Virus record (IMG/VR): IMGVR_UViG_3300025303_000068
Location: 1 to 20,229 of that record
Reading direction: 5' to 3' (one strand)
Length of the DNA stretch: 20,229 nt
Source of the DNA: a virus
The position numbers and the translations under genes were made by a program. How positions within the stretch are numbered: position 1 is the stretch's first letter; the number at the start of each line of letters is the position of its first letter. The notes beneath the pieces are model-generated. The model did no database searches and was not told where the DNA came from. It worked only from the letters and a program-made list of their open reading frames with translations. Shown here in pieces: positions 1,599-20,229 of this stretch.

Positions 1599-1619
1599 CT
1601 CGCCGGCCCGTCCGGCGAG
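1599..1619 (+). other. Hairpin at the expected 5' end of the riboswitch transcript
   Basis: CTCGCCGG, loop CCCGT, CCGGCGAG: a perfect 8-bp stem directly before the TPP aptamer. A -10-like TAGAAT at 1585-1590 would start the transcript about here, putting this hairpin at the very 5' end of the RNA, but no convincing -35 accompanies it. It may stabilise the leader. Confidence 0.4.
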
Positions 1620-1620
1620 T

Positions 1621-1740
1621 TTCGCTAGGGGTGCTGGTCCGATCGATGCGTCGGCGGGCCGGCTGAGAAAGTCCCTTTGAACCTGATGACGGCCAGTCCG
1701 GCCGTCAGCCCGCGGAGCCAGATCTTCGCGGGCCGAGTTA
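1621..1740 (+). ncRNA. TPP riboswitch (THI element), 5' half canonical, 3' half divergent
   Basis: The order and spacing of the THI-box landmarks are clear: AGGGGTGCT (1627-1635), GGCTGAGA (1661-1668) and CCTTTGAACCTGAT (1674-1687). Between the first two lies a paired P3 region, CTGGTCC against GGGCCGG. These motifs form the pyrimidine-sensing half of the TPP aptamer. The expected 3' part (a short P4/P5 stem, then a CGNAGGGA-like segment) is not canonical. Instead there is GACGGCC-AGTCC-GGCCGTC (1688-1706) followed by CCCGCG...CGCGGG (1709-1714 with 1727-1732). TPP riboswitches normally control thiC or other thiamine synthesis and transport genes; here the next gene is an unrelated lipoprotein. 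Either this is a variant aptamer, or the element to the right interrupted the riboswitch or its gene. The right boundary given is approximate. Confidence 0.75.
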
Positions 1741-2487: not shown

Positions 2488-2504
2488 AGCCACGTCCTCG
2501 GTCC

Positions 2505-2523
2505 TGTACACGCTTCGTGTACA
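2505..2523. promoter_or_regulatory. Perfect inverted repeat upstream of the AbiTii-like gene
   Basis: TGTACAC-GCTTC-GTGTACA, with 7-bp arms and a 5-bp spacer, 18 nt after the lipoprotein stop and about 43-61 nt before the GTG at 2566. Nearly the same element (TGTACAC-ATTTC-GTGTA) stands in the corresponding place before the integrase gene. It could be an operator, an integrase or excisionase binding arm, or an RNA hairpin ending the lipoprotein transcript. There is no U-tract after it, which argues against a terminator. Confidence 0.5.
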
Positions 2524-2532
2524 ACGCAAGCG

Positions 2533-2552
2533 TCACCCTACAAAGATAAACA
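2533..2552 (+). repeat. Motif copy B
   Basis: TCACCCTACAAAGATAAACA, 19 of 20 identical with copy A. Its left flank (the inverted repeat, then CAAGCG) resembles the flank of copy C, while its right flank resembles copy A. The site therefore looks composite, joined near the TCA. A ribosome-binding site (AGGGAGGAG) follows directly. Confidence 0.6.
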
Positions 2553-2565
2553 TTAGGGAGGAGCT

Positions 2566-3573
2566 GTGGCTTCTGTGAACGAGAGGTCCGACCGCCGTGC
2601 CGAGGCATTGGTTGTGGCCCGAGAACTGGTGGACGACCTGGAGTCCGGCGTCGTTTCCATCGCGCAGAATCTGATGAAGGCGCAGCGGCTGGCGCGCCTC
2701 CTGCGCGACTCCGACGCGCAGCGCTGGCTCGACCTGGAGAGCCGCGGCTACCCTGAGACTTTGGCCTTGACCGAGCTGGGCTCTTGCGAGAAGTACGCTC
2801 ATCGCGCGCTCGTGGGAGAAGGGCATAAAGTCTTCCGAACCAGCTTGCCAGCGCTTGAGGCCCAGGTGGATGCCAACCGCGCGGTACTGGACAAGTTCAA
2901 AGCTCCAGTTGCTACGAAAACGGCCAACTTCATGGAACTGAGATCCACCCAGCAACTGCACCAGGGCGTATCGGCACAAATTGCCAACGCTCGCGACACG
3001 CTAACAGGGTCAGTCGCGATCTTTGAACGCATGAAGTCGCACCTGTACCGGTTTGCGGCGGACACGTTGATTGCCCTGGAGTTCGGTGATGTAGTCGAAG
3101 ATCTCTTTGAGTCGGCACGTCAGATTACCGACGCGTTCATCCGCGATCATGCACCCAAGGCTGCGGAACAACTGCTAGCTGCAAATGACCGCTTGCGTGA
3201 GGGGACAGATGAAGCGCTATCCGCAAGTTTGACGTCCTGCCGCAGAGTGCTCAACACGGTTGCGGACTCACTTTTCCCAGCGCAGACCGGTGAGTATGTG
3301 GGTTCCGACAACCGGCCGAGAAAGGTTGGGGCCGAGCAGTACAACAATCGACTCTTGGCATACGCCGACGCCCGGATCGCAAGCGGATCGACCCGTCAGC
3401 TCATCAAGACTCAACTTGGACATCTTGCAGCCCGGCTAGATGCCGTCTATGAAAAGGCCTGCAAAGGGGTTCACGCAGACGTTACCGTCGAAGAGGCTCG
3501 CATGGTGATGATTCAGACTTACCTTTTCCTAGCCGAACTAGCGAGACTGCCCGCAGCTGAACCCCGGGCGTGA
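2566..3573 (+). CDS. AbiTii-domain protein, putative abortive-infection defence gene
   Basis: 335 residues from GTG at 2566, chosen because a very strong AGGGAGGAG ribosome-binding site precedes it. Residues about 20-64 (ELVDDLESGVV...LARLLRDSDAQRWLDLESRGYP) match the pattern of the AbiTii domain: two helices, then W-x-x-x-E-x-x-GYP. AbiTii domains are linked to abortive infection and other phage-defence proteins. The C-terminal third (about 215-330) has a second recognisable family pattern, with R-R-V-L-N-T-V-A-D-x-L-F-P, QYNNRLLAYAD and KGVHADVTVEEA (His303). This resembles the C-terminal helical domain often found with AbiTii; whether it is an RNase-type (HEPN-like) domain is uncertain. 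There is no signal peptide, so it is cytoplasmic. The gene lies in cargo carried by a prophage, fitting superinfection defence. Function is inferred from domains only. Confidence 0.75.
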   Translation: MASVNERSDRRAEALVVARELVDDLESGVVSIAQNLMKAQRLARLLRDSDAQRWLDLESRGYPETLALTELGSCEKYAHRALVGEGHKVFRTSLPALEAQVDANRAVLDKFKAPVATKTANFMELRSTQQLHQGVSAQIANARDTLTGSVAIFERMKSHLYRFAADTLIALEFGDVVEDLFESARQITDAFIRDHAPKAAEQLLAANDRLREGTDEALSASLTSCRRVLNTVADSLFPAQTGEYVGSDNRPRKVGAEQYNNRLLAYADARIASGSTRQLIKTQLGHLAARLDAVYEKACKGVHADVTVEEARMVMIQTYLFLAELARLPAAEPRA

Positions 3574-3614
3574 TACGAATCTCGGCGATCAGTCGCTGCA
3601 GAAGGACTTACGTC

Positions 3615-3653
3615 ACTAGCTGAGTTGTTGAGCGCGATGTCCACTCGCTGAGT
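3615..3653. promoter_or_regulatory. Paired direct repeats upstream of the toxin-antitoxin pair
   Basis: ACTAGCTGAGT (3615-3625) and ACTCGCTGAGT (3643-3653) differ at one base and are 28 bp apart (start to start). They lie 22-60 bp before the toxin start. GAGTTG (3622-3627) and CAACTC (3654-3659) also form an inverted pair. Such repeats fit an autoregulatory operator of a toxin-antitoxin operon. No clear -35/-10 pair was found, so this is tentative. Confidence 0.3.
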
Positions 3654-3674
3654 CAACTCTCAGCAGGTCGCTCG

Positions 3675-4052
3675 ATGTTCCCCAAAGAGTTCTTCATTGT
3701 CCCCGAAGAGGTGTTCCGCCTCGGAAATTCGTCTAGCCCCAAACTCGCCCACGTTCGCCCGCATGATGTCCGGCAGACAGTGATTAACGGGATCACCGTT
3801 GTGATCGCGAACAACAAGGGCATCAGTGTCTTCGACAAGGACGGGATCGCACGCACCGACATGAGCGGCTGGGTGTGGAAATTTGCCCCAAGTACGCCGT
3901 TCCCGACGGGCCTCAAGCTTGTGAATGACAAGCCCGGCCACTTCTGTATCGCCCCGACCTCGGACATGCCGCTTGGCAAGTACAAGGGACTGCTGGAGGA
4001 GCTAGCATTGAAGGCAACCAGAGTGTTTTACAAGCAAGGGGCGCAGGTATGA
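3675..4052 (+). CDS. Tse2-like ADP-ribosyltransferase-fold toxin (probable)
   Basis: 125 residues. The pattern VRPHD (about 27-31), GISVFDKDGI (49-58), W-V-W-K-F, PTGLKLVNDKPGH (78-89) and a short C-terminal stretch ending MPLGKYKGLLEEL corresponds, in order, to the Pseudomonas Tse2 toxin as I remember it (a TSVFDRAGV segment, then PDLKVKQD, then HYTIMPAKPM). Tse2 folds like ADP-ribosyltransferases and arrests cells from the cytoplasm. There is no signal peptide and no type VI secretion gene is nearby, so this copy more likely acts as an intracellular toxin of a toxin-antitoxin pair than as a secreted effector. It overlaps the next gene by 4 bp (ATGA), which couples their translation. The ribosome-binding site is weak (AGG about 11 nt upstream). 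The assignment comes from pattern recall and needs a profile search. Confidence 0.7.
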   Translation: MFPKEFFIVPEEVFRLGNSSSPKLAHVRPHDVRQTVINGITVVIANNKGISVFDKDGIARTDMSGWVWKFAPSTPFPTGLKLVNDKPGHFCIAPTSDMPLGKYKGLLEELALKATRVFYKQGAQV

Positions 4053-4282
4053 GCAAAGTGACGGTGGAGCTACTGGAGTGGGAGGCCAGGCTGGTCCTCC
4101 TCGCGATGGCCGAGCTGAAAGAGAAGTGGCGGACCATCTGTAATACGACCACGGACGAAGATGTCCAGGCCGACTACGGAAATGATCTCGTTGAGCTTGG
4201 AATGGCGATGGATTCGATCAAGGACAAGTCAGTCGCTGAGTTCGGAGAGCAGATTCTCGTCTTTGACCGAACTCCGCTCTGA
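4049..4282 (+). CDS. Small acidic protein, probable antitoxin/immunity partner of the Tse2-like toxin
   Basis: 77 residues, net acidic, predicted mostly helical (MSKVTVELLEWEARLVLLAM onward), with no DNA-binding motif visible. Its ATG overlaps the toxin's TGA by 4 bp. From memory, Tsi2, the immunity protein of Tse2, is also 77 residues and acidic, and it ends with a similar helix followed by a Y/F-D-R segment (here VFDRTPL). Sequence identity is low, so common descent is only a suggestion. The order toxin-then-antitoxin with a shared terminator downstream fits a type II toxin-antitoxin operon. I do not recognise this protein independently of its neighbour. Confidence 0.65.
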   Translation: MSKVTVELLEWEARLVLLAMAELKEKWRTICNTTTDEDVQADYGNDLVELGMAMDSIKDKSVAEFGEQILVFDRTPL

Positions 4283-4377
4283 TTGCAGGCGACAGCTTAG
4301 AATTCGTCCCGAGCGCTTTGCGCTCCATGCTCCTCCCTCCCTGAGCATGCGGCAAGTCAAAACGCGATGAGCTGTTG

Positions 4378-4407
4378 TGGCCTCGGCATTGTCGAGGCCA
4401 TTTTTTT
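4378..4407 (+). terminator. Strong factor-independent terminator after the toxin-antitoxin operon
   Basis: TGGCCTCG, loop GCATTGT, CGAGGCCA: an 8-bp perfect stem followed by seven T. It starts 95 nt after the antitoxin stop. A second weaker hairpin (CATGCTC/GAGCATG, 4326-4349) lies between. Confidence 0.9.
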
Positions 4408-4818
4408 CTCCTGCACCTTCTACGTACGCGGCTCGTGCATCGCCTCAGGCCCGGCAAACACCGACTGGTCATCGCGACGCCCGTACCGTACATCTCTCGG
4501 GGGACAGAAGTTGCCACGAAGACTCGAAGTTGGACCGCTCCAGTACACCGAGCTGAGTTCGAAATGGCCTTCCGGCTGATGTCGAGCACGGCGATGCCTT
4601 AATCAGCAGGCGGCTACAGGAGACCGCATCGTCTCGCGCCTGCCGCGTCGAACCGCTGGACCACTTGGTGCGAAAGCCCGGCCCTGCGAGCGAATGCATT
4701 TGCCATCCCCATTTTTAGCGCCCCCAAAGGAGGGAAGGGTTTGCACGACTCCCGCTACTTGGCGCCTGCCCAATCATGCTCAGGCGCATCCGCGCAATTG
4801 ATGCAAAAGGGAGAAAAC
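4408..4818. other. 411-bp gap without a supported gene
   Basis: Short open frames exist on both strands but are Arg/Ser/Pro-rich without ribosome-binding sites or recognisable motifs. An upstream extension of the next gene (TTG at 4741, ATG at 4801) is possible but less likely than the GTG at 4819. The stretch may be gene debris plus the promoter of the next gene; I see no clear promoter. Confidence 0.4.
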
Positions 4819-5526: not shown

Positions 5527-5572
5527 TCACTTCAGCGGGCCCACGGGCGCACAAATATATGGACCAACGCGA

Positions 5573-6604: not shown

Positions 6605-6626
6605 TTTCGCGCTCGACGGAGGTTCA

Positions 6627-8240
6627 ATGCGAGCGAGGGTTTACAGCTATCTCAGATTCAGCGACGCCAAGCAGGCCACAGGCGCCAGCAGCGACCGCCA
6701 ACGCGCTTACGCTCAGGAGTGGGCAAAGCAGAATGGCCTCACCCTGGACGAATCGCTCAGCATGAGGGATGAAGGGCTATCCGCCTACCATCAGAAGCAC
6801 GTCAAGCGGGGAGCATTGGGCGCTTTCCTGAAAGCCGTTGAGGACGAAAAGGTGCCCATCGGGTCCGTGCTGGTCGTGGAGGGTCTAGACCGGCTCTCGC
6901 GTGCCGAGCCGATGGTGGCGCAGGGCCAACTAGCCCAGATCATCACTGCGGGCATCACGGTGGTCACGGCGGGTGACAACAAGCAGTACAGCCGAGAGAG
7001 CCTGAAGGCGAATCCCATGGATTTGGTCTACAGCCTTCTAGTGATGATTCGCGCTCACGAAGAGAGCGCCACCAAGAGCAAGCGGGTGCGCGACGCCATC
7101 CGACGGATGTGCCGCGGCTGGGCAGAGGGCACGTACCGGGGACTCATTCGCTATGGACAGACCCCCGGCTGGCTACGGGTGCAGGACGGCAAATGGGAAC
7201 TGATTCCCGAACGAGCCGAGGCCTACCGCTACGCAATTGAGCGCTTCCGTTCCGGTGTCGGACTAGGACCAATCATTCAAGAATTACAGGTACGCGGCTT
7301 GGAGCTTGGAACCTCCGAAGCCCGGTCCGGGCAGATGTCACGACTACTCTCCCATCCGGCACTGAAGGGGGAGAAGCACCTGGATCTCGACGGCGAGACG
7401 TTTGTGCTGGAGGGCTACTACCCAGCAGTCGTACCCAAGAGCGAATGGGATGAGCTTCAGGTCCTCGTTGGTCAGCGATCACGAAAAAGGATTCGACGCT
7501 CCATCCCGGCTATCCTCACCGGGGCCGGCGTGACCATTTGCGGTTATTGCGGAGCGTCGAAGAAGACGCAGACCATGACTGCAAGAATGAAGGCTGACGG
7601 CAGTGTGCCGGATGGCAACCGCCGTCTGCAGTGCTGTAGCGACAATGGCGCAATCAAGTGCCCTGTTCGTAGTTCGTGCTCCGCTGCGCCCATTGAGCGC
7701 GCCTTGATGAACTTTTGTTCGGACATGCTCAATCTTCAATCACTGTATTCCGGAGACGCAACGGCCGCTCCGAGAGCTGCCGTCATCGCTGCAAGGGAAA
7801 AGCTCAAGAAGATCGACAGCCAGTTGGACCGCTTGACGCAGGCCATGCTTGACGATGAAGGCAGCGCACCGGCTGTCTTCGTGCGCCGAGCAAAGGAAAT
7901 GGAGGAACAGCGCGGCCATCTTGAGCACGAACTGCAGACAGCGGAGCGCGCTCTGGCCGACGCAGCGCGCGTGGACATCACAGGCTCCGAGGACCGGTGG
8001 CGAGAACTTGCTGCCGGCGTCGAAACGCTCGATACAGAGTCGAGACTGAGAGCGCGGCAACTCATCGCCGACACATTCGACCAGATCGTGGTCTACCGGA
8101 TCGGCATCGATCCGCAAACCACGCCTGCGGGCACCATGGACGTGCTACTCCGGGCAAAGGGCGGGAAAGCCCGACTGCTCCGAATCGACAAGAAGGGCGG
8201 ATGGGTGGCAGGCGCCGAGTTCGCCGCCCTGCCCGCCTGA
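6627..8240 (+). CDS. Large serine recombinase (site-specific integrase)
   Basis: 537 residues, the usual size for large serine integrases. The N-terminal resolvase domain (about 4-155) has YSYLRFSD with the catalytic Ser12 and Arg10, SSDRQ (21-25), and LDRLSR (87-92) matching the conserved D-R-L-x-R. A recombinase domain follows (about 165-285). A zinc ribbon has Cys305-x2-Cys308 and paired cysteines at 336/337, 345 and 351. A charged coiled coil (about 385-450) comes next, as in integrases where it controls direction of recombination. The C-terminal tail is basic. The start is supported by GGAGG 5 nt upstream. The enzyme should catalyse integration between short attP and attB sites through a Ser-DNA linkage, and excision with a directionality factor; none is evident here. 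It ends 3 bp from the convergent late operon. Confidence 0.95.
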   Translation: MRARVYSYLRFSDAKQATGASSDRQRAYAQEWAKQNGLTLDESLSMRDEGLSAYHQKHVKRGALGAFLKAVEDEKVPIGSVLVVEGLDRLSRAEPMVAQGQLAQIITAGITVVTAGDNKQYSRESLKANPMDLVYSLLVMIRAHEESATKSKRVRDAIRRMCRGWAEGTYRGLIRYGQTPGWLRVQDGKWELIPERAEAYRYAIERFRSGVGLGPIIQELQVRGLELGTSEARSGQMSRLLSHPALKGEKHLDLDGETFVLEGYYPAVVPKSEWDELQVLVGQRSRKRIRRSIPAILTGAGVTICGYCGASKKTQTMTARMKADGSVPDGNRRLQCCSDNGAIKCPVRSSCSAAPIERALMNFCSDMLNLQSLYSGDATAAPRAAVIAAREKLKKIDSQLDRLTQAMLDDEGSAPAVFVRRAKEMEEQRGHLEHELQTAERALADAARVDITGSEDRWRELAAGVETLDTESRLRARQLIADTFDQIVVYRIGIDPQTTPAGTMDVLLRAKGGKARLLRIDKKGGWVAGAEFAALPA

Positions 8241-8243: not shown

Positions 8244-8771
8244 TCACCCCTTGCGCTGTTCCTCCACCGGGTGTGGCGCTCGCGGGTTGCTGCTGCCGAA
8301 GTAGTAGCCCAGCACCAGCCCCAGGCCCATATCCAGGGTCCCCAGCGTCCGCATGATGATCTCCCGCATTTCCGCGGGAACCACATGCGCGAGCAGCCAC
8401 GCCTGAACCACGAACCATCCCGCGACGATGGCACCCGCAAGCAGACGCGGCGTCAAGCTGTCGCCCGTTGCCGCCTCCCGCTTGCGGGCATCCGCTCGGT
8501 CTTGTGTGGCCGCCAGGGTCAAGGCCTGATGGTTGCTGAAACCCAGCTCGCGCATGCGCAACTGGAACCCCTGCTCCGCCTCCCGCAGCTTCGCCAGCTG
8601 GGTTTCAGAGGCTCGCGCGATCGCTTCGGTCACATGCGCCGCGGTCTCGCCCGGCGCCTCCAGCGCCTCGGCTGCCGTGCGCAGCGCCTGCATCGCCAGG
8701 CCACCCGGTCCAGCCGCAGCGGCCGCGATCCACGGAGCGACCTTCCCCAGCAGCTTCTGCAGCTCGCTCAT
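8244..8771 (-). CDS. Phage membrane protein with C-terminal transmembrane pair (3TM-holin-like)
   Basis: 175 residues starting at ATG 8771 (MSELQKLLGKVAPW), which has a good AGGAGGTG ribosome-binding site; longer readings upstream are out-of-frame overlap with neighbours. Residues about 40-110 are a charged helical segment (ATQDRADARKREAATGDSLT). Two hydrophobic stretches follow (LLAGAIVAGWFVVQAWLLAHV and a glycine-rich LGTLDMGLGLVLGYYFG), and the tail ends in a basic segment. This arrangement resembles phage proteins annotated as 3TM holins of gene transfer agents and many temperate phages. It overlaps the preceding gene by 4 bp (ATGA). Last gene of the late operon; its stop is 3 bp from the integrase stop, with no terminator between. 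Confidence 0.75.
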   Translation of the reverse strand: MSELQKLLGKVAPWIAAAAAGPGGLAMQALRTAAEALEAPGETAAHVTEAIARASETQLAKLREAEQGFQLRMRELGFSNHQALTLAATQDRADARKREAATGDSLTPRLLAGAIVAGWFVVQAWLLAHVVPAEMREIIMRTLGTLDMGLGLVLGYYFGSSNPRAPHPVEEQRKG

Positions 8772-9070
8772 CGCATCACCTCCTTCAGTGCCATCAACAG
8801 CAGCGCGAGCAGCCAGCCGGGCACCGCCGTGGCCAGCACGTCGGCCAGTTCGACGCCGTGCATCCCCGGCTGGATCTTGTTGTCTTGGTAGTCTGCCACC
8901 TCCTTGGTGAAGCCGGCTACGGTGGACGCGATCAGCGCTCCCGAAGCGGCGCCGATCAGGTCTGGAGCCTCCCCAGCGACCACGGGGGCCACCGTGGCCA
9001 ACGCCATGCCCGTCAGGCCGGCCAGAAGGCCCGCCAGGGCGTGTTTCAGCTTGTCCTGTTGAACGATCAT
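8768..9070 (-). CDS. Small phage membrane protein with DKxxH and KE-x-D motifs
   Basis: 100 residues. Features in order: DKLKHALAGLLAGLTG (6-21, amphipathic then hydrophobic), a second Gly/Ala-rich hydrophobic segment, KEVADYQDNK, PGMHGVELADVLATAVPGW, and a final hydrophobic helix (LLALLLMAL). Small proteins with a DK-x-x-H...KE-x-D arrangement are known in phage lysis regions and in YfiM-like envelope proteins; their biochemical role is unclear to me. It starts 2 bp after the endolysin stop (9073) and overlaps the next gene by 4 bp. It could be an accessory lysis or envelope protein. It is not an obvious Rz-type spanin. Confidence 0.75.
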   Translation of the reverse strand: MIVQQDKLKHALAGLLAGLTGMALATVAPVVAGEAPDLIGAASGALIASTVAGFTKEVADYQDNKIQPGMHGVELADVLATAVPGWLLALLLMALKEVMR

Positions 9071-9072
9071 GG

Positions 9073-9546
9073 TCAGACCTCCTGAATGCCCAGCAGCGCT
9101 CCAGCAGGGCCAATGGTGATGACACGATTAACGGGCGCGGCCGGAATGCGGGTGGACGTATGCACCCATGCGGTTCGGCCGGGCTTCTCGTAGATCAGTT
9201 GCCCGACGCCCAGACCACGCACCAGCGGCGCCAGGGCCTTCGCAACCTCGTAGGGGGTCCCGAACGCGGGCGCCGACCAATCAGCGGCCATGGCCTTGAT
9301 GTGGTCGCTGGTCGCGCTACTGCCCACGGCGCGATTCAGTTCGAAGCTGCGATAGCCGCTACTGACCAGCACGGGCACGTCGCACCCCTTCATCGCGGAC
9401 AGCTCGGCGCGGATGCGCTCCAACATCTGCGCAGTGCGCCTCGCTTCCTCCAGCAGCACTGCGGGCAGAACATTCTGAATGCCGCGCTCCGCGGCCGTAG
9501 AGCTGGCCGTGAACTCGGCCAGGGTGAAGTGCTCGGACAGCTTCAT
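9073..9546 (-). CDS. Endolysin, M15 (D-Ala-D-Ala carboxypeptidase-like) metallopeptidase
   Basis: 157 residues. It begins MKLSEHFTLAEFTASSTAAE, the usual opening of phage M15_3 peptidases. Catalytic-site motifs are present: SGYRS (63-67) with the LN pair (70-71); S80-x-His82-x6-Asp89 (the zinc ligands His82 and Asp89); and W127-V-His129 as the third ligand. The family cleaves peptide bonds in the peptidoglycan stem or cross-link, so this protein should degrade the cell wall at lysis. There is no signal peptide, so it needs the holin for export. The gene starts within the holin stop (4-bp ATGA overlap). The usual Gly between His and Asp is Ala85, a tolerated change. Confidence 0.92.
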   Translation of the reverse strand: MKLSEHFTLAEFTASSTAAERGIQNVLPAVLLEEARRTAQMLERIRAELSAMKGCDVPVLVSSGYRSFELNRAVGSSATSDHIKAMAADWSAPAFGTPYEVAKALAPLVRGLGVGQLIYEKPGRTAWVHTSTRIPAAPVNRVITIGPAGALLGIQEV

Positions 9547-9836
9547 CGTCCGCTCCTTTCGTTGGGATGGCAGTGGCCGCGGCAGCCGCTGCTCGCGATC
9601 ACCTCTGGACTGACTGATCGCATGCGCAGCTCGTGCTCGCGCTCTTCGCGCCGGTCCTGCCGGCGCCGGAAATAGAGGTTGATGACCAGGCCCAGGACTG
9701 CCACCAGCGCACCGGCAAGGGCCGCGGCTTCACTGGAGAACACGACGCCGAGCCCAGAACTCGCTGCGCCGCCGTAGGTGGCCTTACTCGCCGACGCCGC
9801 GAGGGCCGCGTCGGCTGCTTGCGTTTTCACGCTCAT
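9543..9836 (-). CDS. Holin, HP1-like (single strong transmembrane segment)
   Basis: 97 residues from ATG 9836 (MSVKTQAADAALAAS); an upstream TTG at 9848 is a weaker alternative. Pattern: KATYGGAASSGLG, then SSEAAALAGALVAVLGLVINLYF (one clear membrane helix, about 35-57), then a highly charged RRRQDRREEREHELRMR segment facing the cytoplasm. This is the HP1-family holin plan. The C-terminal tail contains CRGHCH, a possible metal-binding motif of unknown meaning. A holin opens the inner membrane at a set time and lets the endolysin reach the wall. It overlaps the endolysin start by 4 bp, and a factor-independent terminator stands just before it, so the lysis cassette may depend on read-through or an internal promoter. 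Confidence 0.85.
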   Translation of the reverse strand: MSVKTQAADAALAASASKATYGGAASSGLGVVFSSEAAALAGALVAVLGLVINLYFRRRQDRREEREHELRMRSVSPEVIASSGCRGHCHPNERSGR

Positions 9837-9851
9837 GGATCTCTCCAAGGG

Positions 9852-9892
9852 AACAAAAGAAAGCCCGCCGCGGCTCTTGGCCAGGGCGGGCT
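9852..9892 (-). terminator. Factor-independent terminator between tail and lysis genes
   Basis: On the minus strand AGCCCGCC (9892-9885), a 15-nt loop, GGCGGGCT (9869-9862), then TTCTTTTGTTC (9861-9851). It lies 16-56 nt upstream of the holin start and 31 nt after the stop of the preceding gene. It would limit transcription into the lysis genes unless late antitermination applies. Confidence 0.8.
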
Positions 9893-9922
9893 GAAATGGA
9901 GAGAGGGAGAGAGACTTGAGGC

Positions 9923-10135
9923 TCAGCTTTCCGAACTGGTATCCATCGGCTGGCGAGGCCGCCCCTGCTCATGTTGCGCGTGCTGGCGCTGCAGTTGCTC
10001 CCCGGCCTGTCGTTGCACCTCGTGCAGGACTGCGGCGCAGTGCTCGTAGGGCAGTTTCGCGGCGCCAGCGAGGAGCAGATTCACGCCGCTCAGTGCAAGC
10101 GTGATCGTGATGATCGGTTCGTTGTTCGGTGCCAT
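9923..10135 (-). CDS. Small phage protein of the tail-lysis junction
   Basis: 70 residues from ATG at 10135 (MAPNNEPIITITLALSGVN). The pattern ITLALSGVNLLLAGAAKLPYE...VLHEVQRQAGEQLQ resembles small siphophage proteins whose helices carry V-N-x-x-L-x-x-x-x-x-LPY followed by a Q-rich helix; they are usually unnamed. The longer reading upstream (start near 10201) overlaps the preceding gene and is less likely. It begins 4 bp after the stop of the gene at 10140-10517 and is followed by the terminator at 9852-9892, so it is the last gene of the tail segment. Function unknown. The apparent hydrophobic stretch is too short and too mixed to call a membrane helix. Confidence 0.65.
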   Translation of the reverse strand: MAPNNEPIITITLALSGVNLLLAGAAKLPYEHCAAVLHEVQRQAGEQLQRQHAQHEQGRPRQPMDTSSES

Positions 10136-10139
10136 GGTC

Positions 10140-10517
10140 TCAGTTGCCGCTGGGCTGTTGGATCGCCGCCTGAGCAGCAGTCGCCGCGGCAGCTCGTTCA
10201 TCGCGCGCCTGCGCGCCGATCATGTAGAGGGAATGCAACGCCGCGCGCAGCTGCAGATGCGTCATGGTCTCGCCCGTCAGTTCCCCCGATTCGGGATCGC
10301 GCAGCGCGATCACGCCGGCCGGATCGAAGGCGACCGAGACAGTCTCGAAGTCAAACACCTGTGTCAGGCCGATGACCTTGCCGTCCGCAGTGATCACATC
10401 CTGTTCGGTGAAATCGATGCGTGGCTCGCCGCCGCCTGGAAGTGGGTTATGGATGACGCCGCTGAAGGCCCGGCGCCACGAAATGGCGCTGGTCTGGTTC
10501 TCGCGATAGTTGGGCAT
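10140..10517 (-). CDS. Phage hypothetical protein, tail-fibre region
   Basis: 125 residues. Begins MPNYRENQTSAISWRRAF and contains IDFTEQDVITADGKVIGLTQ, then LRDPESGELTGETMTHLQLR, and ends with an Ala/Gln-rich helix (ERAAAATAAQAAIQQ). Comparable proteins are found just downstream of tail fibres in temperate phages and Burkholderia/Bordetella-type prophages; no function is known to me. It could be a tail-associated chaperone or a minor structural protein. It follows the 178-aa gene by 21 bp. Confidence 0.7.
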   Translation of the reverse strand: MPNYRENQTSAISWRRAFSGVIHNPLPGGGEPRIDFTEQDVITADGKVIGLTQVFDFETVSVAFDPAGVIALRDPESGELTGETMTHLQLRAALHSLYMIGAQARDERAAAATAAQAAIQQPSGN

Positions 10518-10538
10518 AGCCTCTCTCCTTTGTCTCTC

Positions 10539-11075
10539 TTACGCCTCTCTGAAGGCGGAAAATTCGACGGTGCCGGAACACACGATGTTGTTGCCGACCG
10601 CGTCGCTGCTGATATCGAATCGAAGGGTTCCGGAGCGACCTGCGGTCGCCCCCTGCTGGGACGTTGCGTAGCCCCACCCTTGCACACCGCCGAGCGGGAG
10701 CCACGTGTTCATCGCGGAGCCGTTGTTCGGACTTTGCCCGCTGACGACGGTCGCACGTACCCAATGCTCCGCACCAATGCCGGAGACCGGCGCGTCGTAC
10801 CAGACCGTGTTGGGCCCACTCTCGTTGCCGGAGAACGAGACATAGCCGTCGCTGTCGATGCTGCAGCTACAGGCCGATGCGCCGATCATCCCGATGAAGT
10901 AATCGGCCGCACGACCGCTGAAGTTGGTGGGTTGGCTCGCTGCGGACTGTCGCCAGCCCGTGCCGTCGTGCACATACACGGCGCGAGCCTTCCTCCACGC
11001 AGCGCCGTCATGGACCCACAGGGCACGAGCACGTCGCCACGCCGCGCCATCGTTGAAGTGCAGCGCGCGTCCCAT
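10539..11075 (-). CDS. Tail protein with three DGAAWR repeats (178 aa)
   Basis: Starts at ATG 11075, sharing one base with the stop of the fibre gene (TAATG). The N-terminal ~42 residues are three near-identical units: ALHFNDGAAWRRAR, ALWVHDGAAWRKAR, AVYVHDGTGWRQS. Such V-H-D-G-x-x-W-R units occur in tail tip or fibre-associated phage proteins, where they probably form small beta hairpins. The rest is Gly/Ser-rich and beta-like (IDSDGYVSFSGNESGPN...), ending VEFSAFREA, with a single CSC motif. I infer a receptor-contact or tip protein. The translation-coupled position after the 587-aa fibre supports this. The exact role is unknown. Confidence 0.7.
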   Translation of the reverse strand: MGRALHFNDGAAWRRARALWVHDGAAWRKARAVYVHDGTGWRQSAASQPTNFSGRAADYFIGMIGASACSCSIDSDGYVSFSGNESGPNTVWYDAPVSGIGAEHWVRATVVSGQSPNNGSAMNTWLPLGGVQGWGYATSQQGATAGRSGTLRFDISSDAVGNNIVCSGTVEFSAFREA

Positions 11076-12838
11076 TAGTACATCACCCAGATGTCGCCCT
11101 GGGCGCCGCCGGACGGCGTGCCGGTGGACACAGTGATTCGGCCCAGGCCATTTCCGGCGCGGTTCACGTCGTTGCCGAAGATCCGCCCCGATACGCCGAG
11201 CGTCCCGTCGTTGAACAGTCCCATGCGCTGGGCGCTGTTCTTGTACCAAAAGAAGCGATCGGAGTAGCGCCCCACCGTCCAGCCGCCATCCCTCGCCTCG
11301 TTGGACGCACGGAAGTGGATAGAGATCTCCTGGGCGTCACCGGCCGTCCCGAACAGCTGGAGCATGCCGTATGAGCCAGCCGGTGACGTATACGCCATCA
11401 CACCGCCTTGACTGACGTCGAGGGTCGCATCAGCGCTCCGCATCCGGAGTCCGTAGTAGCCGGCCAAGTGCACCCCGTTGCCCCCGTTTCCGAAGAGGTT
11501 GGCGACATACCCCACGCCGTACCACGGTGCCGTGCCACTGATCGAGTCCGCTGGACTCGCATTGGCCACGGTGTAGCGGTTGGCCACCACGGCGTTCCCG
11601 TTCGACACCGTCAGCGCGCCCGACAGATTCATGTTGCCGCCAACGTCGATGGCCGCGACTTGGGCTCCACTGCCGTTGCCCACTACGACCCCTGAGCCCG
11701 AGTGCCAGTTGAGGAACACGCCCCGGTTCACACCAGGGTCCAGATGCAGAGTTCCGTTGGTCGCCACAACACTCGCCAGCTTGTCGGTACGGGTGAGGCC
11801 ATTGACTCCATCGCCGCCGACGACGAGCACCCCGCCCCACGTCCCGTTCGGGTTGAACGACAGTCTTCCGTTCTGAGCGACGTTGAAAGTCGCGGCCGAC
11901 ACGATGGGGCTTCCACCGTTTCGGTCAATCACGTTCCACCAGCCGTTCTCGGTCGAGTTCAGGACATGCAGGTTGCCGCGGAAATAGCTCGGCCCCTGCA
12001 CCTCAATCTGTCCGGGAAAGGTTGGCGACTGCAGGGGTGCATAGTTCGCAGGGGCGAAGTTGCCGGCGTGCCAAACCACCTTTCCGCCCGCGGCATAGAG
12101 CCCACCAGCGGCATAGAAGTCGCCGTTCTGGCGGAAGGTGAACTTTGAACCCGCCGCGGTGGGCGTCCCGAAGTGGATGCCGATGGAGTCATCCCCGCCC
12201 CATCCAGCGCTACCCTGGAAGTAGCTAAGGCCGTATGCATCGGCGTTCCCGAAACGCCAGATGGGATTGCGCTGGTCCACGACGTAGGCAGTGCTCACAA
12301 AGCCCGCGCCACCTGCAGCTTGCACGACGCCATTAACCGTCAACGCACCGCGCAGCGTTCCGCCTGCAATTGGCAGGTAGTCCGCGGGGTTGAAGTTTCC
12401 CGCGTGCCAAACGGCATTCCCGGCCACCGCCAGGATCACGGATGCCCAGTTGGCCCGGTCCGCGGCGGGGTCAGTGGCTGAGCTGCCCGCAGACCTGCGG
12501 CGGTACAGCATGCGGTCCGACGGCGAGTAGACGACGGCGTCGGCCGGATAGACCGCCGGAGCGCTCCACGCCGCAGCGCCAGCGTAGGCGGCAGCCAGTT
12601 CCGCGCTCGTTTGGGCCGCAGCCCGATCAGCACGCGTTGCCGCGCGATCAGTTGCCGTTGCAACCGCATCGGCGTCAGCCCGAGCAACGCTGGCATCCAC
12701 CTGGTCGAAGGCGGTGTTGAGCTCTTTGACCATCACGGTCAGCGACGCAACATGCTTGTCCGCCGCGAGCACGAACGCCTCGGGCGACTGCTGCCGATTC
12801 GGAGCAGGCGGCAGGGAAGTAATGTCGTAGATCGGCAT
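11075..12838 (-). CDS. Tail fibre protein (587 aa)
   Basis: The N-terminal ~110 residues are helical and Ala-rich (MPIYDITSLPPAPNRQQ, then an ADADAVATATDRAATRADRA coiled-coil-like run), probably the tail-attachment part. Two collar-type repeats follow: AVWHAGNFNPADYLPIAGG (about 142) and VVWHAGNFAPANYAP (about 258), as in fibres of many temperate phages. The remainder is Gly/Asn/Ser-rich beta repeats (GVLVVGGDGVNGL, LSGALTVSNGNAVV), ending GTPSGGAQGDIWVMY. There is no visible S74-type self-cleaving chaperone domain at the C-terminus. The fibre trimer should bind the host receptor. It overlaps both neighbours by one base (TAATG), so the three genes are translationally coupled. Confidence 0.85.
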   Translation of the reverse strand: MPIYDITSLPPAPNRQQSPEAFVLAADKHVASLTVMVKELNTAFDQVDASVARADADAVATATDRAATRADRAAAQTSAELAAAYAGAAAWSAPAVYPADAVVYSPSDRMLYRRRSAGSSATDPAADRANWASVILAVAGNAVWHAGNFNPADYLPIAGGTLRGALTVNGVVQAAGGAGFVSTAYVVDQRNPIWRFGNADAYGLSYFQGSAGWGGDDSIGIHFGTPTAAGSKFTFRQNGDFYAAGGLYAAGGKVVWHAGNFAPANYAPLQSPTFPGQIEVQGPSYFRGNLHVLNSTENGWWNVIDRNGGSPIVSAATFNVAQNGRLSFNPNGTWGGVLVVGGDGVNGLTRTDKLASVVATNGTLHLDPGVNRGVFLNWHSGSGVVVGNGSGAQVAAIDVGGNMNLSGALTVSNGNAVVANRYTVANASPADSISGTAPWYGVGYVANLFGNGGNGVHLAGYYGLRMRSADATLDVSQGGVMAYTSPAGSYGMLQLFGTAGDAQEISIHFRASNEARDGGWTVGRYSDRFFWYKNSAQRMGLFNDGTLGVSGRIFGNDVNRAGNGLGRITVSTGTPSGGAQGDIWVMY

Positions 12839-13731
12839 TAGATGAGCCCCTCGATTTCAAGGGAGCAGTCGGACCATTTCGGCCCGGAGATCACGATGTC
12901 CACGTCCTTGTAGTAGCCGTAGACGATGGAGGCGTCGTAGAGCGCCGTCGCCACCCAAACGAGCGGGACGGCACGGTATTGCGCGAGCAGACGGAAGACA
13001 CGATCAACGTCACCAGCCCGAATGCGGATCGGCGCGCGCAGCTTCTTGCTGTAGGGGCGCTGCACCACGCGCCACTCGCCGAAGCTGTCGCGCTCCTTCA
13101 CGCTGTAGTCGGTGATCCCGAGGCTGAGACCGAACTTGGTATCGCCCAGCTCGTGTTGCTGACCCAGAGCGACCACGCCCACGCTGGCATCGCCCTCACT
13201 GTTCATGATCTCGATTTGCACCTGCGCGTCGTTGTAGGGCGGCAAGTCAAACAACACCAGATCGCGACGCCGCAGGATCGGCTCGAAGTAGTACGCATAC
13301 CAGTCGCTGATGCCGCTCGCACTGACCAGATCGACGGTGCGGTCGTACACCAGCCCATCAACCTTGTCGGTCACACGGACGCGAACCTTGGTCGCCTCCA
13401 TGTCCATCACGGCAACGGCGTTCACGCGACCTTCGCCCTGAATCGTGATGTCGATCAGCGCAGGCATCGAGGTCGTGGTCCCCACTGCCGCGTCAAACGC
13501 GGCCCAGCGATTCGTGGCGCCAACGTCTACCCACGCAGTCGGGCTCGCGGCCGGCGCCTTGCCAGTGTTCCCATCGGTGAGGCTTTCGTATCGCCGATGG
13601 GTTGCAGCCACCACCACTCGGTCACCCTTCTTGTAGGTGGTGGCTGCCGCCCAGGCGGGATGATCGGTCTCGGGCACGTTGCTGCGAAGCAGCGCCGCAT
13701 CCGTCACCTTCATAGGTCGGATCACTTTCAT
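12838..13731 (-). CDS. Tail/baseplate protein with N-terminal carbohydrate-binding-like motif (297 aa)
   Basis: Residues about 25-75 (AWAAATTYKKGDRVVVAATH, then RYESLTDGNTGKAP) match the W-x-x-x-x-x-Y-x-x-GD-x-V...Y-x-S-x-x-x-x-N-x-G-x-x-P signature of small carbohydrate-binding (CBM5/12-like) repeats that phages place on tail tips. A WVDVGATNRWAAFD segment, then beta-rich sequence, complete the protein. Comparable proteins follow the tape measure gene in some temperate phages. Its start at 13731 is only 5 nt after a hairpin and U-rich tract, with a poor ribosome-binding site; an in-frame ATG lies at 13713. Probably a distal tail or baseplate protein linking the tail tip to the fibre. Confidence 0.75.
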   Translation of the reverse strand: MKVIRPMKVTDAALLRSNVPETDHPAWAAATTYKKGDRVVVAATHRRYESLTDGNTGKAPAASPTAWVDVGATNRWAAFDAAVGTTTSMPALIDITIQGEGRVNAVAVMDMEATKVRVRVTDKVDGLVYDRTVDLVSASGISDWYAYYFEPILRRRDLVLFDLPPYNDAQVQIEIMNSEGDASVGVVALGQQHELGDTKFGLSLGITDYSVKERDSFGEWRVVQRPYSKKLRAPIRIRAGDVDRVFRLLAQYRAVPLVWVATALYDASIVYGYYKDVDIVISGPKWSDCSLEIEGLI

Positions 13732-13735
13732 GGCT

Positions 13736-13763
13736 CGAAGAAGAAGCCCGGCCGAAGCCGGGC
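13736..13763 (-). terminator. UUCG-loop hairpin with U-rich tail between tape measure and the next gene
   Basis: On the minus strand GCCCGGC-TTCG-GCCGGGC (13763-13746) is followed by TTCTTCTTCG (13745-13736). The stable UUCG tetraloop plus U-rich tract is typical of a factor-independent terminator. It starts 10 nt after the tape measure stop and ends 5 nt before the next start codon, so it may attenuate rather than end transcription. Confidence 0.7.
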
Positions 13764-13772
13764 GGTTGTACG

Positions 13773-16700
13773 TCAGGCCGCCGCTTCCCGCGTGACCAGC
13801 GCATCCCCCGCGGGGGACACGCGCTCAAGCACCTTGGCCGCACGCTGCGTGCTGGAGGCGATGGCGAACTGCGAGGCTTCCTGCTCGGCTCTGAACTGCT
13901 CCACCTCGGACCGCAGCTTGCGAACCTCCTGCAGCAGCTCGTCATTCGGCGAGGCTGCGGCCGAAGCACCGCCTGCGATCAGGGACGCGTCATAGCCCGC
14001 CGCGCCGCCAGCCATGACGGCGGCGGAGACCACTCCCTGCTGCTTCTGCCGAGCACGGACTTCCGTCAGCGTCGCCTCCAGGCTGGCCATCGTGGCCGCC
14101 TGCAGGCGACGCAGCTCGACAGAGCTGCTCGCATTTGCCGCCGCGGCCTCCAGCAGCGAACCGCTCAGCTGCGGCAGCCGGGCCGCCGCCTCCTGATCGC
14201 CGGCACGAGCTGCCGCAGTGTCGATTGCGAACTGCGCCTGCAAGGTGCTCAGGCTGGAGTCCGGGCTATCCGAGAGCAGTCCGCGGATGCGGTTGATCTC
14301 TTCTTCAATCCCGTCGCCCAATCGCTCCCATGCCTCGCTCGCGCGCGTCACAGCCTCCGCCGCGGCCTCCGCTGCCACCTTCTCGTCCTGAATGGCCCAG
14401 ATGCGTTCCTGCAGAGGCCGCAGGCTGGCGTCCATCTTCGCTAGCTCGGCCGCTCGGATCTCCGCAGTGGTCCCCGTCAGTTGGAGCAGCTGCGACTGCA
14501 AGCCTTCGCGCTGGCTGGCCAGCTGCTGCTGAGCCTGTGCCGCAGCCTGGGCAGCCGCCTGCTCATCCTGCAGGGCGTAGATGCGCTCCTGCAGGGGACG
14601 CAGGCTCGCATCGAGCTTTTCCAGCTCGCGGCGGCGCAGCTCGGCGGTATTGCCCTGAAGCTGCAGCAGTTGTCCCTCCAGGCTCTCGCGCTGGCTGGCC
14701 AGCTGCTGCTGCGACTGAGCTGCGGCCTGGGCCGCCGCCTGCTCGTCCTGCAAGGCCCAGATGCGCTCCTGCAAGGGGCGCAGGCTCGCATCCATGCCTG
14801 TCAATTCACGGCGCCTCAGCTCAGCGGTATTCCCCTGCAGCTGCAGCAGCTCGTTCTCGAGCTGCAGGCGATCAGCGACGAGCTGGCTGGACGACTCGGC
14901 CGCGCCGGCCAGCACCTCCTGCAGCGCGGCGAAGCTGCCGGACAGCGTGATGACGCGGCCGAACAACTCCTGGCCCGCGGCGGTGCTGGTGTCGATCCCC
15001 TGCACGAGCCGCCGAAAGCCGTCGATGGACGATGGCATCGACAGGCCCAGTGCAGAGAACTTCTCTGACAGCCGCCGCGACATCTCCGATGTGCGCTCGC
15101 CTTCCGTCAGGAACTTGTCGAAGTAGACCTGAAGACCGTCGCTGAGGGCGTCAACGCCCCCAGCGCCGCGGATCATCTCCGCGCCCAGGGACCGCACATC
15201 GACACCAACGGCACGCAGCCCATCCCGCATTCCGGCCAGGCTCCCCCACAGAGTCGCCAGTTCGTCCGCCGAGCCGCTGAACGCCTCCACGATGTCCCCG
15301 ACGCCTGTGGTCAGCCCGTAGCGCGCATGCTCCCAGGCCAGCAGGCTCTCCCTGATAACCTCGGTGCCAACATCGCCCTGCTTGTTCACGACGTTCGTGT
15401 ATGCGACGGCGGACACGCCCAATCGGTCCAGAACAGACCGCGCCGACTCAACGCCGGAGGCGACCCGAACAACGGTCTCGAAGTAACCCTCCCCGACCTT
15501 CTGGAAGTCTCGGAGGCCGGGTAGAGCAGCGCCTGCGATGTTGTCGGCAGCGGCGCCGAAGACGGCCGTGAGCTTCTCCTGGATCTGCTGTCCGGTCAGC
15601 CCCTTCAGGTCAATCTTGCCGATGCTGACCACGAACGACGACAGGCGCTTGCGCACCTCATCGAGGTTGGCACCCAAGGGCTGAGCAGCCAGCTCGATGC
15701 CGTTATAGAACTGCTGGAACATCAGGCCGAACTGCTGCTGCAACAGCGGATCTGCCGCTGAGAACCGCGTGCTCGAACTACTGCTGTAGGTGAAGCCCAA
15801 AGCCTTGCGCTTCTTCTTGACGTCGATGTAGTTCTGTAGATTCGCGCCATCGGTCACGATGCTCCCAAAGGTCTGATTGCCCATGTAGAGACCCGTGCCA
15901 TTCACCGTGGTTTTCGACCCGAACAGTGAACCCAACACTTTGCCGACGACCGGCAGCTTGCTTGCCAAGCTAACGGCCACTCCGATTGCGCCACCCAGGA
16001 CTCCCGCGAGCGCCGGGTTTGAAATGGAACCGGGTAGCTTCGTCCCTTCCTGCACGCCAAAGTTTGCGCCCGTGGTCAGATTTCCATCGCGCACGATCAG
16101 CCCGGACAGGCCGCTGATGCCGCTTGCAATCGTGTTGAGTGCGGAGAGCATGCCCTGGCTGTAGCGCAGCGACACGTCGCTGTTCTTGGCCAAATGCTCG
16201 ATGGCGTTCGTGATGCTCGCGCTCTTGGCTGAACTGTCCCCCAGCACCGTGCCGGTCCCGGTGTTGCCTGGGTCCGCCTTCGATCCCCCGCCGATGCCAC
16301 CGACGAGGAACCCAAGCGCAGCCATGATGGCGGCCATGGCCGCCATGCGCGGAATGGCCGAATACGGATCTCCCATCGCCTGATTGGCGACGCCTGCGAC
16401 GGCCGCTGCCTGACCTGCGGCGGTATTCGCTGCCACCTGCTGCGCGGCCGACGCAACGCTCGACTGCGCGGCGAGCTGATCGCCCGTGACCTTGGCAGCG
16501 GTCACGGTGGTCACCTCCAGCAGCCGCTGCGCCATGGACTTCACCGACATCGCCAGCTCGAAGGCACGGAACACTTGCTCCGCTTTCTGTAGCGCGGAGT
16601 ACCCCTTCGTCCCCTCCTTGAAGAAGCCCTTCGCTGCGCCGGCGATGTTCCCGTAGGCATTGAGCTGCTGGGTAGTGCCCTTGTCGGTGATCTGCTGCTG

Positions 16701-19256: not shown

Positions 19257-19267
19257 CGTTTGCCCTC

Positions 19268-19591
19268 CTAGGTATTCGCGGCTTCCCGCTTCTGACGCCA
19301 GCCCTGAAGCCAGCCGCGCTCAAGGCACTGGATCTCGGCGAATCGCTCAGTGCGCTCCCGCGCCTTGATCCCGCGAACCCGCAGCAGCGCCTCAACGCTC
19401 GGATACGACAAGCCAACTGGGCCGGCCATGCCGACTACCCATTGGGTCTGCAGGGCCAGGAACAGCTCGAAGGCATCGAGGCAATCGGGCCATAGGTGCC
19501 ACTCGCGCTCCCGCGCCGCGGCGTCGTCCTCCTCCAGCACGAGTCCGAAGGCTGCGAGCGCATCCGCGACCGCGCCTTTCTGCTCCTCCAC
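19268..19591 (-). CDS. DUF1799-like tail protein, expressed mainly as the -1 frameshift extension of the tail assembly chaperone
   Basis: The 107 residues read from GTG 19591 contain a W-x-x-x-x-D-A-F-E-L-F-L-A-L-Q-TQW-V-V-G-x-x-G-P-V-GL-S-Y pattern, matching DUF1799 phage proteins. That start has no good ribosome-binding site. The frame is open upstream to the slippery site at 19651-19645, adding 18 codons (CTG ACC GAG ...). The natural product is therefore a fusion of the 113-residue chaperone to about 125 residues of this frame, roughly 238 in total, like the gpG-gpGT arrangement of lambda. The chaperone and the fusion together coat the tape measure protein during tail assembly. It ends 11 bp before the tape measure start. 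Confidence 0.8.
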   Translation of the reverse strand: MEEQKGAVADALAAFGLVLEEDDAAAREREWHLWPDCLDAFELFLALQTQWVVGMAGPVGLSYPSVEALLRVRGIKARERTERFAEIQCLERGWLQGWRQKREAANT

Positions 19592-19641
19592 CTCTCCGCC
19601 CAGCTGCAGCTCACCGCGAGCCAGCAGCCGGCCGGTCTCGG

Positions 19642-19983
19642 TCAGTTTTTTTCCTTCGCCCCGAACTCCTTCAGGTAGGACTGGTACGCCGCGAACGCGG
19701 CGCCGGGGAAGTTGAAGAGCGCCGCCAGCGCGTCAGCACAGAACTCGGCCGGCTTGCCGGTGCTTTCTTCCAGCACCAGCGTCTGACCGGACCATCCCTT
19801 GGTCACGTCCGTCATGAAGTCCTTGACGGTCTGGCTGTCGTCCTTGACGCGCTCCGAAACCTCGGCCTGGTTGAGCCGGTCGCACTGCAGCGAGAACTTG
19901 AATGTGGCCGCCTTGTCACCGTCATTGACGACGAGGCGAACCGGAACGTTGACGATGGGGGCGACGGCGAACTTGTAGGACAT
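19642..19983 (-). CDS. Tail assembly chaperone (gpG-like)
   Basis: 113 residues from ATG 19983 with CAGGAG 5 nt upstream. Begins MSYKFAVAPIVNVPVRLVVN and is mostly strands, then helices (KDDSQTVKDFMTDVTKGW, LEESTGKPAEFCADALAALF), ending AAYQSYLKEFGAKEKN. This fold plan and position (between major tail protein and tape measure) fit siphophage tail assembly chaperones. Its last codons contain a slippery heptamer just before the TGA, so a fraction of ribosomes produces the longer fusion. The short form and the fusion are needed in a set ratio in lambda; that ratio is unknown here. Confidence 0.85.
   Translation of the reverse strand: MSYKFAVAPIVNVPVRLVVNDGDKAATFKFSLQCDRLNQAEVSERVKDDSQTVKDFMTDVTKGWSGQTLVLEESTGKPAEFCADALAALFNFPGAAFAAYQSYLKEFGAKEKN
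19645..19651 (-). promoter_or_regulatory. Programmed -1 ribosomal frameshift site A AAA AAC
   Basis: The mRNA reads GG-AAAAAAA-C-TGA. In the zero frame the codons are GAA AAA AAC TGA, so the heptamer A-AAA-AAC is in the exact X-XXY-YYZ register required, with the stop codon immediately after. Slipping back one base opens the DUF1799 frame for 125 codons (through 19271). AAAAAAC is among the most efficient bacterial slippery heptamers. No strong pseudoknot was identified by eye downstream. Confidence 0.9.
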
Positions 19984-20010
19984 GGATGCTCCTGAGGATC
20001 TGAAACGACA

Positions 20011-20038
20011 GCGGCCCCGGACTGATCGCCGGGGCCGC
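20011..20038 (-). terminator. GC-rich hairpin between major tail protein and chaperone genes
   Basis: Minus strand GCGGCCCCGG, an 8-nt loop, CCGGGGCCGC: a perfect 10-bp stem. It is followed by TGTCGTTTC, so the U-tract is poor. It stands about 62 nt after the major tail protein stop and 28 nt before the chaperone start. A partial terminator here would lower expression of the chaperone and tape measure genes relative to the abundant tail tube protein. Confidence 0.55.
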
Positions 20039-20099
20039 GCAGCTGGGCGCCTTCGCGCTCGATGTGTTTGGGGTAGCCGCCCAAAGGCAGCGGTGTGGG

Positions 20100-20229
20100 T
20101 TACAGCAGGACCAGACGCAACTCGTCGTTGCCACTCTTCGGCACGAAGCGAAGGTCATAGCTGGCCATCGCTCGACCGTTGTAGTCCTCGTAGCTCGGGC
20201 TCAGCCGCTGAACCGCGGGCCCGAACAGC
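20100..20229 (-). CDS. Major tail (tube) protein, C-terminal end (cut by window edge)
   Basis: The frame runs in from beyond 20229 and stops at TAA (20102-20100), giving the last 42 residues: a Tyr/Ser/Pro-rich loop (RLSPSYEDYNGRAMASYD) and a final strand LRFVPKSGNDELRLVLL. Position directly before the chaperone frameshift gene, and a beta-strand ending, fit the major tail protein of long-tailed phages. The identification rests on position more than sequence. Confidence 0.65.
   Translation of the reverse strand, partial: LFGPAVQRLSPSYEDYNGRAMASYDLRFVPKSGNDELRLVLL

What the first reader, a model, noticed from the sequence alone, without database searches (positions are those of the whole stretch)
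3675..4282. Prophage-borne Tse2/Tsi2-like toxin-antitoxin pair outside a type VI secretion context
A 125-aa protein with Tse2-family landmarks overlaps by 4 bp a 77-aa acidic protein whose size and plan resemble Tsi2. The pair has its own candidate operator repeats and a strong terminator, and lies between defence and exported genes. Tse2 is known as a secreted effector; here it appears as a compact toxin-antitoxin cassette, perhaps stabilising the prophage or blocking other phages. The small partner looks previously unassigned.
Basis: partly seen in the sequence, partly recalled or inferred. Interest (0 to 1): 0.75.

Follow-up and report, generated by a model that had tools for sequence, protein, structure and literature searches.

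The report
Prophage-borne Tse2-type toxin and immunity pair
A bacterial virus sitting in its host's chromosome carries a small toxin gene and its antidote from the Tse2 family of weapons that bacteria inject into rivals through the type VI secretion system; the pair is real and widely mobile, but its relatives occur almost only in bacteria that have that system, so it looks more like a travelling weapon-and-antidote set than a free-standing toxin-antitoxin system.

Summary
The two overlapping genes are real. The 125-aa protein is a Tse2-family ADP-ribosyltransferase (Pfam PF18648, 40.6 bits against a cut-off of 26.6; best fold match the Tse2 structure 5AKO). The 77-aa partner is a conserved acidic two-helix protein that no library names. 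Gene order and the 4-bp overlap recur in about 25 gammaproteobacterial loci, and both proteins diverge together. Many copies are integron cassettes or plasmid genes. The window copy lies in a low-GC arm of a prophage-like element, between a serine integrase and a junction inside the host's TPP riboswitch.

'Outside a type VI secretion context' holds only locally. Of 24 genomes carrying the module, 23 have the T6SS sheath gene. The link also holds within Rhodanobacteraceae (9/9 carriers against 93/234 overall), Microbulbifer (20/20 against 38/48) and Shewanella (4/4 close copies against 27/118). A 63% identical relative was already predicted to be a T6SS effector. Most likely this is a phage-carried effector-immunity pair. 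A cell-internal toxin-antitoxin or anti-phage role is not excluded: 9 of the 10 genomes nearest to the host flank lack the sheath gene, and the host itself is unknown. The partner shows no sequence homology to Tsi2. Toxicity, neutralisation and export are untested.

The parts
3675..4052 (+). Tse2-family ADP-ribosyltransferase toxin gene, 125 aa; G49-I50-S51 aligns with G78-T79-S80 of P. aeruginosa Tse2
   Evidence: PF18648 40.6 bits, cut-off 26.6; profile hits 5ako_C Tse2, E 7.9e-4 and 4.1e-5; AlphaFold2 pLDDT 82, best PDB fold match 5ako_C, prob 1.00
4049..4282 (+). Presumed immunity/antitoxin gene, 77 aa, pI 4.3, two-helix hairpin; no named family
   Evidence: conserved downstream partner; AlphaFold2 pLDDT 92.6, helices 10-33 and 37-65; only sub-threshold family hits
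4377..4401 (+). Candidate intrinsic terminator after the pair
   Evidence: 11-pair stem followed by T6; 0.9 such sites expected by chance
3614..3653 (+). Weak direct repeat CACT[AC]GCTGAGT x2 upstream of the toxin
   Evidence: about 3% of resamples contain such a repeat
2566..3573 (+). Neighbouring gene with an N-terminal AbiTii domain (335 aa)
   Evidence: PF18864 33.3 bits, cut-off 27.6; PADLOC AbiTii 1.4e-10
6627..8240 (+). Large serine integrase of the element
   Evidence: PF00239 and PF07508 above cut-off; PHROG 95 integrase 5.6e-69
1617..1712 (+). Left junction (attL) of the element: host TPP riboswitch whose 3' part is replaced
   Evidence: RF00059 22.8 bits, cut-off 54.3; homologous genomic sites are complete TPP riboswitches at 64-68 bits while nucleotide matches mostly stop at 1687-1705; the second contig of the same element starts at 1713
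8244..20229 (-). Phage late genes: lysis (endolysin 9073-9546), tail, tape measure
   Evidence: PHROGs hits

Best explanation
The pair is a Tse2-family effector-immunity module carried as accessory cargo by a temperate-phage-like element. The 125-aa protein is a basic NAD-dependent ADP-ribosyltransferase-type toxin acting in the cytoplasm. The translationally coupled 77-aa acidic helical protein binds it and blocks its active site, so the lysogen is protected. In a lysogen with a compatible type VI secretion system the free toxin is loaded and injected into neighbours that lack the antidote, which favours the lysogen and so the phage. Shown: family, overlap, conserved pairing, charge complementarity, co-divergence, location in the element, statistical link with T6SS genomes. 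Inferred: catalysis, binding, export, and benefit to the phage.
For: PF18648 over cut-off in the toxin and a hit in all 27 aligned homologues. Profile and fold matches single out Tse2 5AKO. S51 is invariant and aligns with S80 of Tse2, part of the T79A/S80A double mutant with a marked loss of toxicity. Toxin-then-partner with 4-bp overlap in about 25 loci. Toxin pI about 8.7-10, partner pI 4.05-4.7, Tsi2 4.05. Distance matrices correlate at r=0.89, permutation p=0.0005. VipB in 23 of 24 carrier genomes. Within clades: 9/9 carriers against 93/234, 20/20 against 38/48, 4/4 close copies against 27/118; stratified p about 7e-8. In G233 a Tse2-like gene lies 10 kb from VipB. The 63% identical WP_033023891 (L004) was predicted to be a Tse2-like T6SS effector in P. 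fuliginea BSW20308 (PMC11882849). Prophages carrying T6SS effector clusters are known in Ralstonia (PMC11481896).
Against: No T6SS gene was seen in the window. The host is unknown, and 9 of the 10 genomes nearest to its flank lack VipB. One distant Shewanella relative (G051) sits in a VipB-negative genome. The genome association may be partly due to genome size or relatedness (Microbulbifer genomes up to 4.5 Mb: p=0.09). T79 of Tse2 is Ile here, and V109/K110 correspond to L82/V83. No sequence homology of the partner to Tsi2.
Confidence: 0.62

Rival explanations
1. A true T6SS-independent toxin-antitoxin or anti-phage module: the toxin stays in the cell, the antitoxin is lost or outcompeted on phage infection or loss of the element, and arrest of the cell stabilises the prophage or blocks superinfecting phage.
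For: Neighbour of an AbiTii-domain gene in a low-GC accessory stretch. Homologues sit on integron cassettes and on a 3.8-kb plasmid with little else but a replication gene, places where toxin-antitoxin genes also gather. Genomes nearest the host flank mostly lack VipB. Partner gene intact where the toxin is broken in L013, L030, L031.
Against: Carriers are almost all T6SS-positive, an unexpected pattern for a T6SS-independent toxin-antitoxin system. Partner has no predicted DNA-binding domain, toxin gene comes first, repeat upstream is weak. No PADLOC hit for the pair.
Confidence: 0.25
2. The pair serves mainly as immunity: the element keeps the antidote to protect lysogens from T6SS attack by relatives, and the toxin is weak or dying.
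For: Broken toxin genes beside intact partners in some relatives; stop codons inside several Microbulbifer toxin-like matches.
Against: The window toxin is intact with conserved core residues; most relatives keep both genes.
Confidence: 0.08
3. Decayed or non-enzymatic Tse2 fold with another function.
For: T79 equivalent is Ile; the N-terminal half is not covered by the Pfam match and residues 13-23 of the model have low confidence.
Against: Core residues invariant over a broad range of genera, with co-divergence of the partner.
Confidence: 0.05

Closest known systems
Tse2-Tsi2 of Pseudomonas aeruginosa (PDB 5AKO, 3RQ9)
   Same: Tse2 domain; toxin paired with a small acidic helical partner of 77 aa; invariant Ser in the position of S80; no secretion genes needed next door (own knowledge)
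   Different: Shorter toxin (125 aa, against about 158 in Tse2 from own knowledge); 18% identity in the fold match; partner without sequence similarity to Tsi2; carried by a phage-like element
WP_033023891/WP_007379016 of Pseudoalteromonas fuliginea BSW20308 (L004)
   Same: Same subfamily, 63% identical toxin, 125 + 77 aa, same overlap; predicted as a Tse2-like T6SS effector (PMC11882849)
   Different: On a 906-kb replicon of a T6SS-positive bacterium; mRNA bound by CsrA; the partner was not discussed in the passages read
Prophage-borne T6SS effector clusters of Ralstonia (PMC11481896)
   Same: Effector and immunity genes moved by temperate phages
   Different: Those are aux clusters with other toxins; here a stand-alone two-gene pair with no secretion part seen
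Type II toxin-antitoxin systems
   Same: Two small overlapping genes, basic toxin, acidic partner, mobile elements
   Different: No DNA-binding antitoxin domain, no clear operator, association with T6SS genomes

Membership tests
Tse2 ADP-ribosyltransferase toxins | Match to PF18648 above the curated cut-off | tested here: met
   40.6 bits against 26.6; all 27 members hit the family
Tse2 ADP-ribosyltransferase toxins | Tse2 fold | tested here: met
   5ako_C is the top fold match, prob 1.00, E 4.4e-3, TM 0.54; the next match has E 0.7
Tse2 ADP-ribosyltransferase toxins | Residues needed for toxicity (T79/S80; V109/K110) | tested here: inconclusive
   S80 = S51, invariant; T79 = I50; V109/K110 = L82/V83 beside invariant L80 and D85
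Tse2 ADP-ribosyltransferase toxins | NAD-dependent ADP-ribosyl transfer; growth arrest | not testable with these tools
   needs an assay
Tsi2 immunity proteins | Sequence homology to Tsi2 | tested here: not met
   hhalign probability 0.7%; no PDB profile hit to Tsi2
Tsi2 immunity proteins | Tsi2-like all-helical fold, acidic | tested here: inconclusive
   two-helix hairpin, pI 4.3; Tsi2 among the fold matches at TM about 0.7 but not better than ferritin-like hairpins, E about 1-3
T6SS effector-immunity pairs | Occurrence with a T6SS | tested here: inconclusive
   met for the family; unknown for this host, whose nearest genomes mostly lack VipB
T6SS effector-immunity pairs | T6SS-dependent export and killing | not testable with these tools
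   needs an experiment
Type II toxin-antitoxin systems | Antitoxin with DNA-binding domain and operator autoregulation | tested here: inconclusive
   no named domain, plain helical hairpin; one weak repeat
Type II toxin-antitoxin systems | Labile antitoxin, addiction on loss | not testable with these tools
   needs an experiment

The most novel reading that the evidence does not exclude
A Tse2-type toxin has been turned into a genuine T6SS-independent toxin-antitoxin or anti-phage module of a temperate phage, working in hosts without T6SS, with a partner unrelated in sequence to Tsi2.
Probability: 0.2. Interest if true: 0.7.

Novelty: new member of a known kind. Interest (0 to 1): 0.45.

Why it matters
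Tse2 is known from one well-studied secreted toxin. Here a compact subfamily with a fixed 125 + 77 aa layout and an unnamed partner family appears in many gammaproteobacteria, on integron cassettes, plasmids and one prophage-like element, and follows T6SS across genomes. This suggests that T6SS weapons travel as small stand-alone two-gene cassettes. It also makes testable whether phages arm their lysogens with such pairs or reuse them as toxin-antitoxin systems.

Tried and rejected
Single-sequence searches against the PDB gave nothing useful; a profile was needed. The significant-looking partner hit to a de novo TIM barrel comes from a short stretch repeated four times in that design and was discarded. 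A tRNA attachment site was rejected; the junction is a TPP riboswitch. The strict attC consensus missed the clear repeats of L003, so flank repeats and a looser motif test were used; the window copy itself shows no attC. That the pair lies in host DNA outside the element was considered and rejected, because the riboswitch junction lies to its left. The phage collection held no convincing relative. The Stenotrophomonas 'Tse2' of PMC13340143 is a different protein that shares only the name.

Full report
Observation. The toxin ORF (3675-4052, 125 aa) and the partner ORF (4049-4282, 77 aa) are present with a 4-bp overlap. The toxin hits Pfam PF18648 (Tse2 ADP-ribosyltransferase toxin) with 40.6 bits against a cut-off of 26.6, over residues 53-116. 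The partner has only a sub-threshold Pfam hit and no NCBIfam, PHROGs or PADLOC hit. The terminator-like hairpin is present but is not rarer than chance by the simple scan. The upstream repeats are weak.

Relatives. Scans of viral contigs, plasmids and genomes gave homologues at 34-70% identity and one 100% identical copy on another contig of the same element (L002). Wherever sequence allows, the toxin gene is followed by a small partner gene, with the 4-bp overlap in nearly all close relatives and an 8-bp overlap in a second group. The toxin gene is interrupted in L013 (in-frame stop), L030 and L031 (frameshifts) while the partner stays open; L030 and L031 are draft contigs, so sequencing error is possible. 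Toxins are basic and partners acidic throughout, and the two distance matrices correlate (r=0.89 over 27 pairs; 0.60 in the 20 close ones; both p=0.0005).

Structure. A profile of the subfamily finds the solved Tse2 (5ako_C, E 7.9e-4; 4.1e-5 with a smaller alignment). The AlphaFold2 model of the toxin (pLDDT 82) has Tse2 as its clear best PDB match (prob 1.00, E 4.4e-3, TM 0.54). The profile alignment puts G49-I50-S51 on chain residues 99-101. With a 21-residue tag these are G78-T79-S80, and the same offset puts V109-K110 on L82-V83; both are positions of the published loss-of-toxicity double mutants (PMC3325213). The tag length is inferred from this double agreement. S51 and G49 are invariant. 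The partner model is a confident two-helix hairpin (pLDDT 92.6). Tsi2 appears among its fold matches at TM about 0.7, but so do other hairpins, and no match is significant. Profile comparison with Tsi2 gives 0.7% probability. So the partner resembles Tsi2 in plan, but homology to Tsi2 is not shown.

Where the module travels. L003 holds an integron integrase (TIGR02249, 476.6 bits) followed by cassettes separated by repeats of about 120 bp, with the pair as one cassette. L014, L013, L016, L024 and L031 show repeats of attC type at the flanks. A loose motif test finds the downstream core in 11 of 31 loci against 0.4 expected, and all three marks in 6 against 0.01. One distant copy is on a 3.8-kb plasmid.

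Where the window copy sits. GC is about 0.70 at 1-1000, falling to about 0.65 by 1500, then 0.52-0.62 from about 1,800 to 8,000, then mostly 0.62-0.69 over the phage late genes. At 1617-1727 a TPP riboswitch matches well in its 5' part but only 22.8 bits in all (cut-off 54.3). Many Xanthomonadales genomes match just this stretch, most matches ending at 1687-1705. The six such places checked are complete TPP riboswitches at 64-68 bits, and in L125 the next reading frame looks like ThiC (identification from own knowledge). In the window a lipoprotein-like gene follows instead. The second contig of the same element starts at the equivalent of 1713. The simplest reading is that the element is integrated in a TPP riboswitch, with the left junction at about 1688-1712. 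The pair then lies inside the element, between this junction and the serine integrase (6627-8240). The right junction was not seen.

Type VI secretion. The sheath family VipB (PF05943) is found in 23 of 24 genomes carrying the module; the exception is an environmental (MAG) genome. Background was measured in three clades. In Shewanella 27 of 118 genomes have VipB, and so do all four genomes with close copies; one distant relative is in a VipB-negative genome. In Microbulbifer 38 of 48 have it, and so do all 20 with Tse2-like genes. The stratified test gives p about 7e-8. Caveats: many hits in the last two clades are distant Tse2 relatives; genomes are related; larger genomes tend to have both (Microbulbifer up to 4.5 Mb: p=0.09). 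The 63% identical WP_033023891 was predicted as a Tse2-like effector in a T6SS-positive strain (PMC11882849).

The host question. The flank at 1-426 encodes a PspA-like protein (own reading of the translation). Its nearest genomes match at only 65-71%, and 9 of those 10 lack VipB. This neither identifies the host nor settles its T6SS state, and it is the main reason for keeping the toxin-antitoxin reading alive.

Verdict. Tse2-family toxin with presumed cognate immunity: strongly supported. Carried by a phage-like element: well supported. Delivered by T6SS: likely for the family, open for this copy. Toxin-antitoxin or defence role: possible, not favoured. Partner as a Tsi2 homologue: not shown. 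A phage that carries T6SS effectors is not unprecedented (PMC11481896). The papers searched did not describe Tse2-type integron cassettes, but the library is not complete.

Noticed in passing
window 1617-1712: The element appears to be integrated inside a host TPP riboswitch, replacing its 3' part and separating it from the downstream gene (probably thiC). No paper with the terms TPP riboswitch, prophage and integration site was found.
   Followed up: partly
window 2566-3573: 335-aa protein with an AbiTii domain only at residues 18-69 and a long tail without family, next to the toxin pair.
   Followed up: no
window 4825-5526 and 5573-6469: Two predicted exported proteins without any Pfam, NCBIfam or PADLOC hit between the pair and the integrase.
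   Followed up: no
L041 1255-1887 (Shewanella G051): Tse2-like protein that seems to start with a signal sequence, followed by a small partner, beside a gene resembling a plasmid replication initiator, in a VipB-negative genome: a possible T6SS-independent branch.
   Followed up: partly
Microbulbifer genomes G677, G678, G673: Five to seven Tse2-like matches per genome, some with stop codons inside.
   Followed up: no
G002-G023 VipB matches: Most carrier genomes have two VipB-family genes about 1.6 kb apart, which suggests a particular T6SS subtype with two sheath-like proteins.
   Followed up: no
L005, whole 3.8-kb plasmid pPsKG3_2: A tiny Pseudoalteromonas plasmid carrying a Tse2-like pair, a replication gene and three other small genes; a 3.9-kb contig of P. 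arctica (L032) encodes identical toxin and partner proteins.
   Followed up: partly
L036 6741-6846: Two near-identical direct repeats of about 46 bp downstream of the pair, origin unknown.
   Followed up: no
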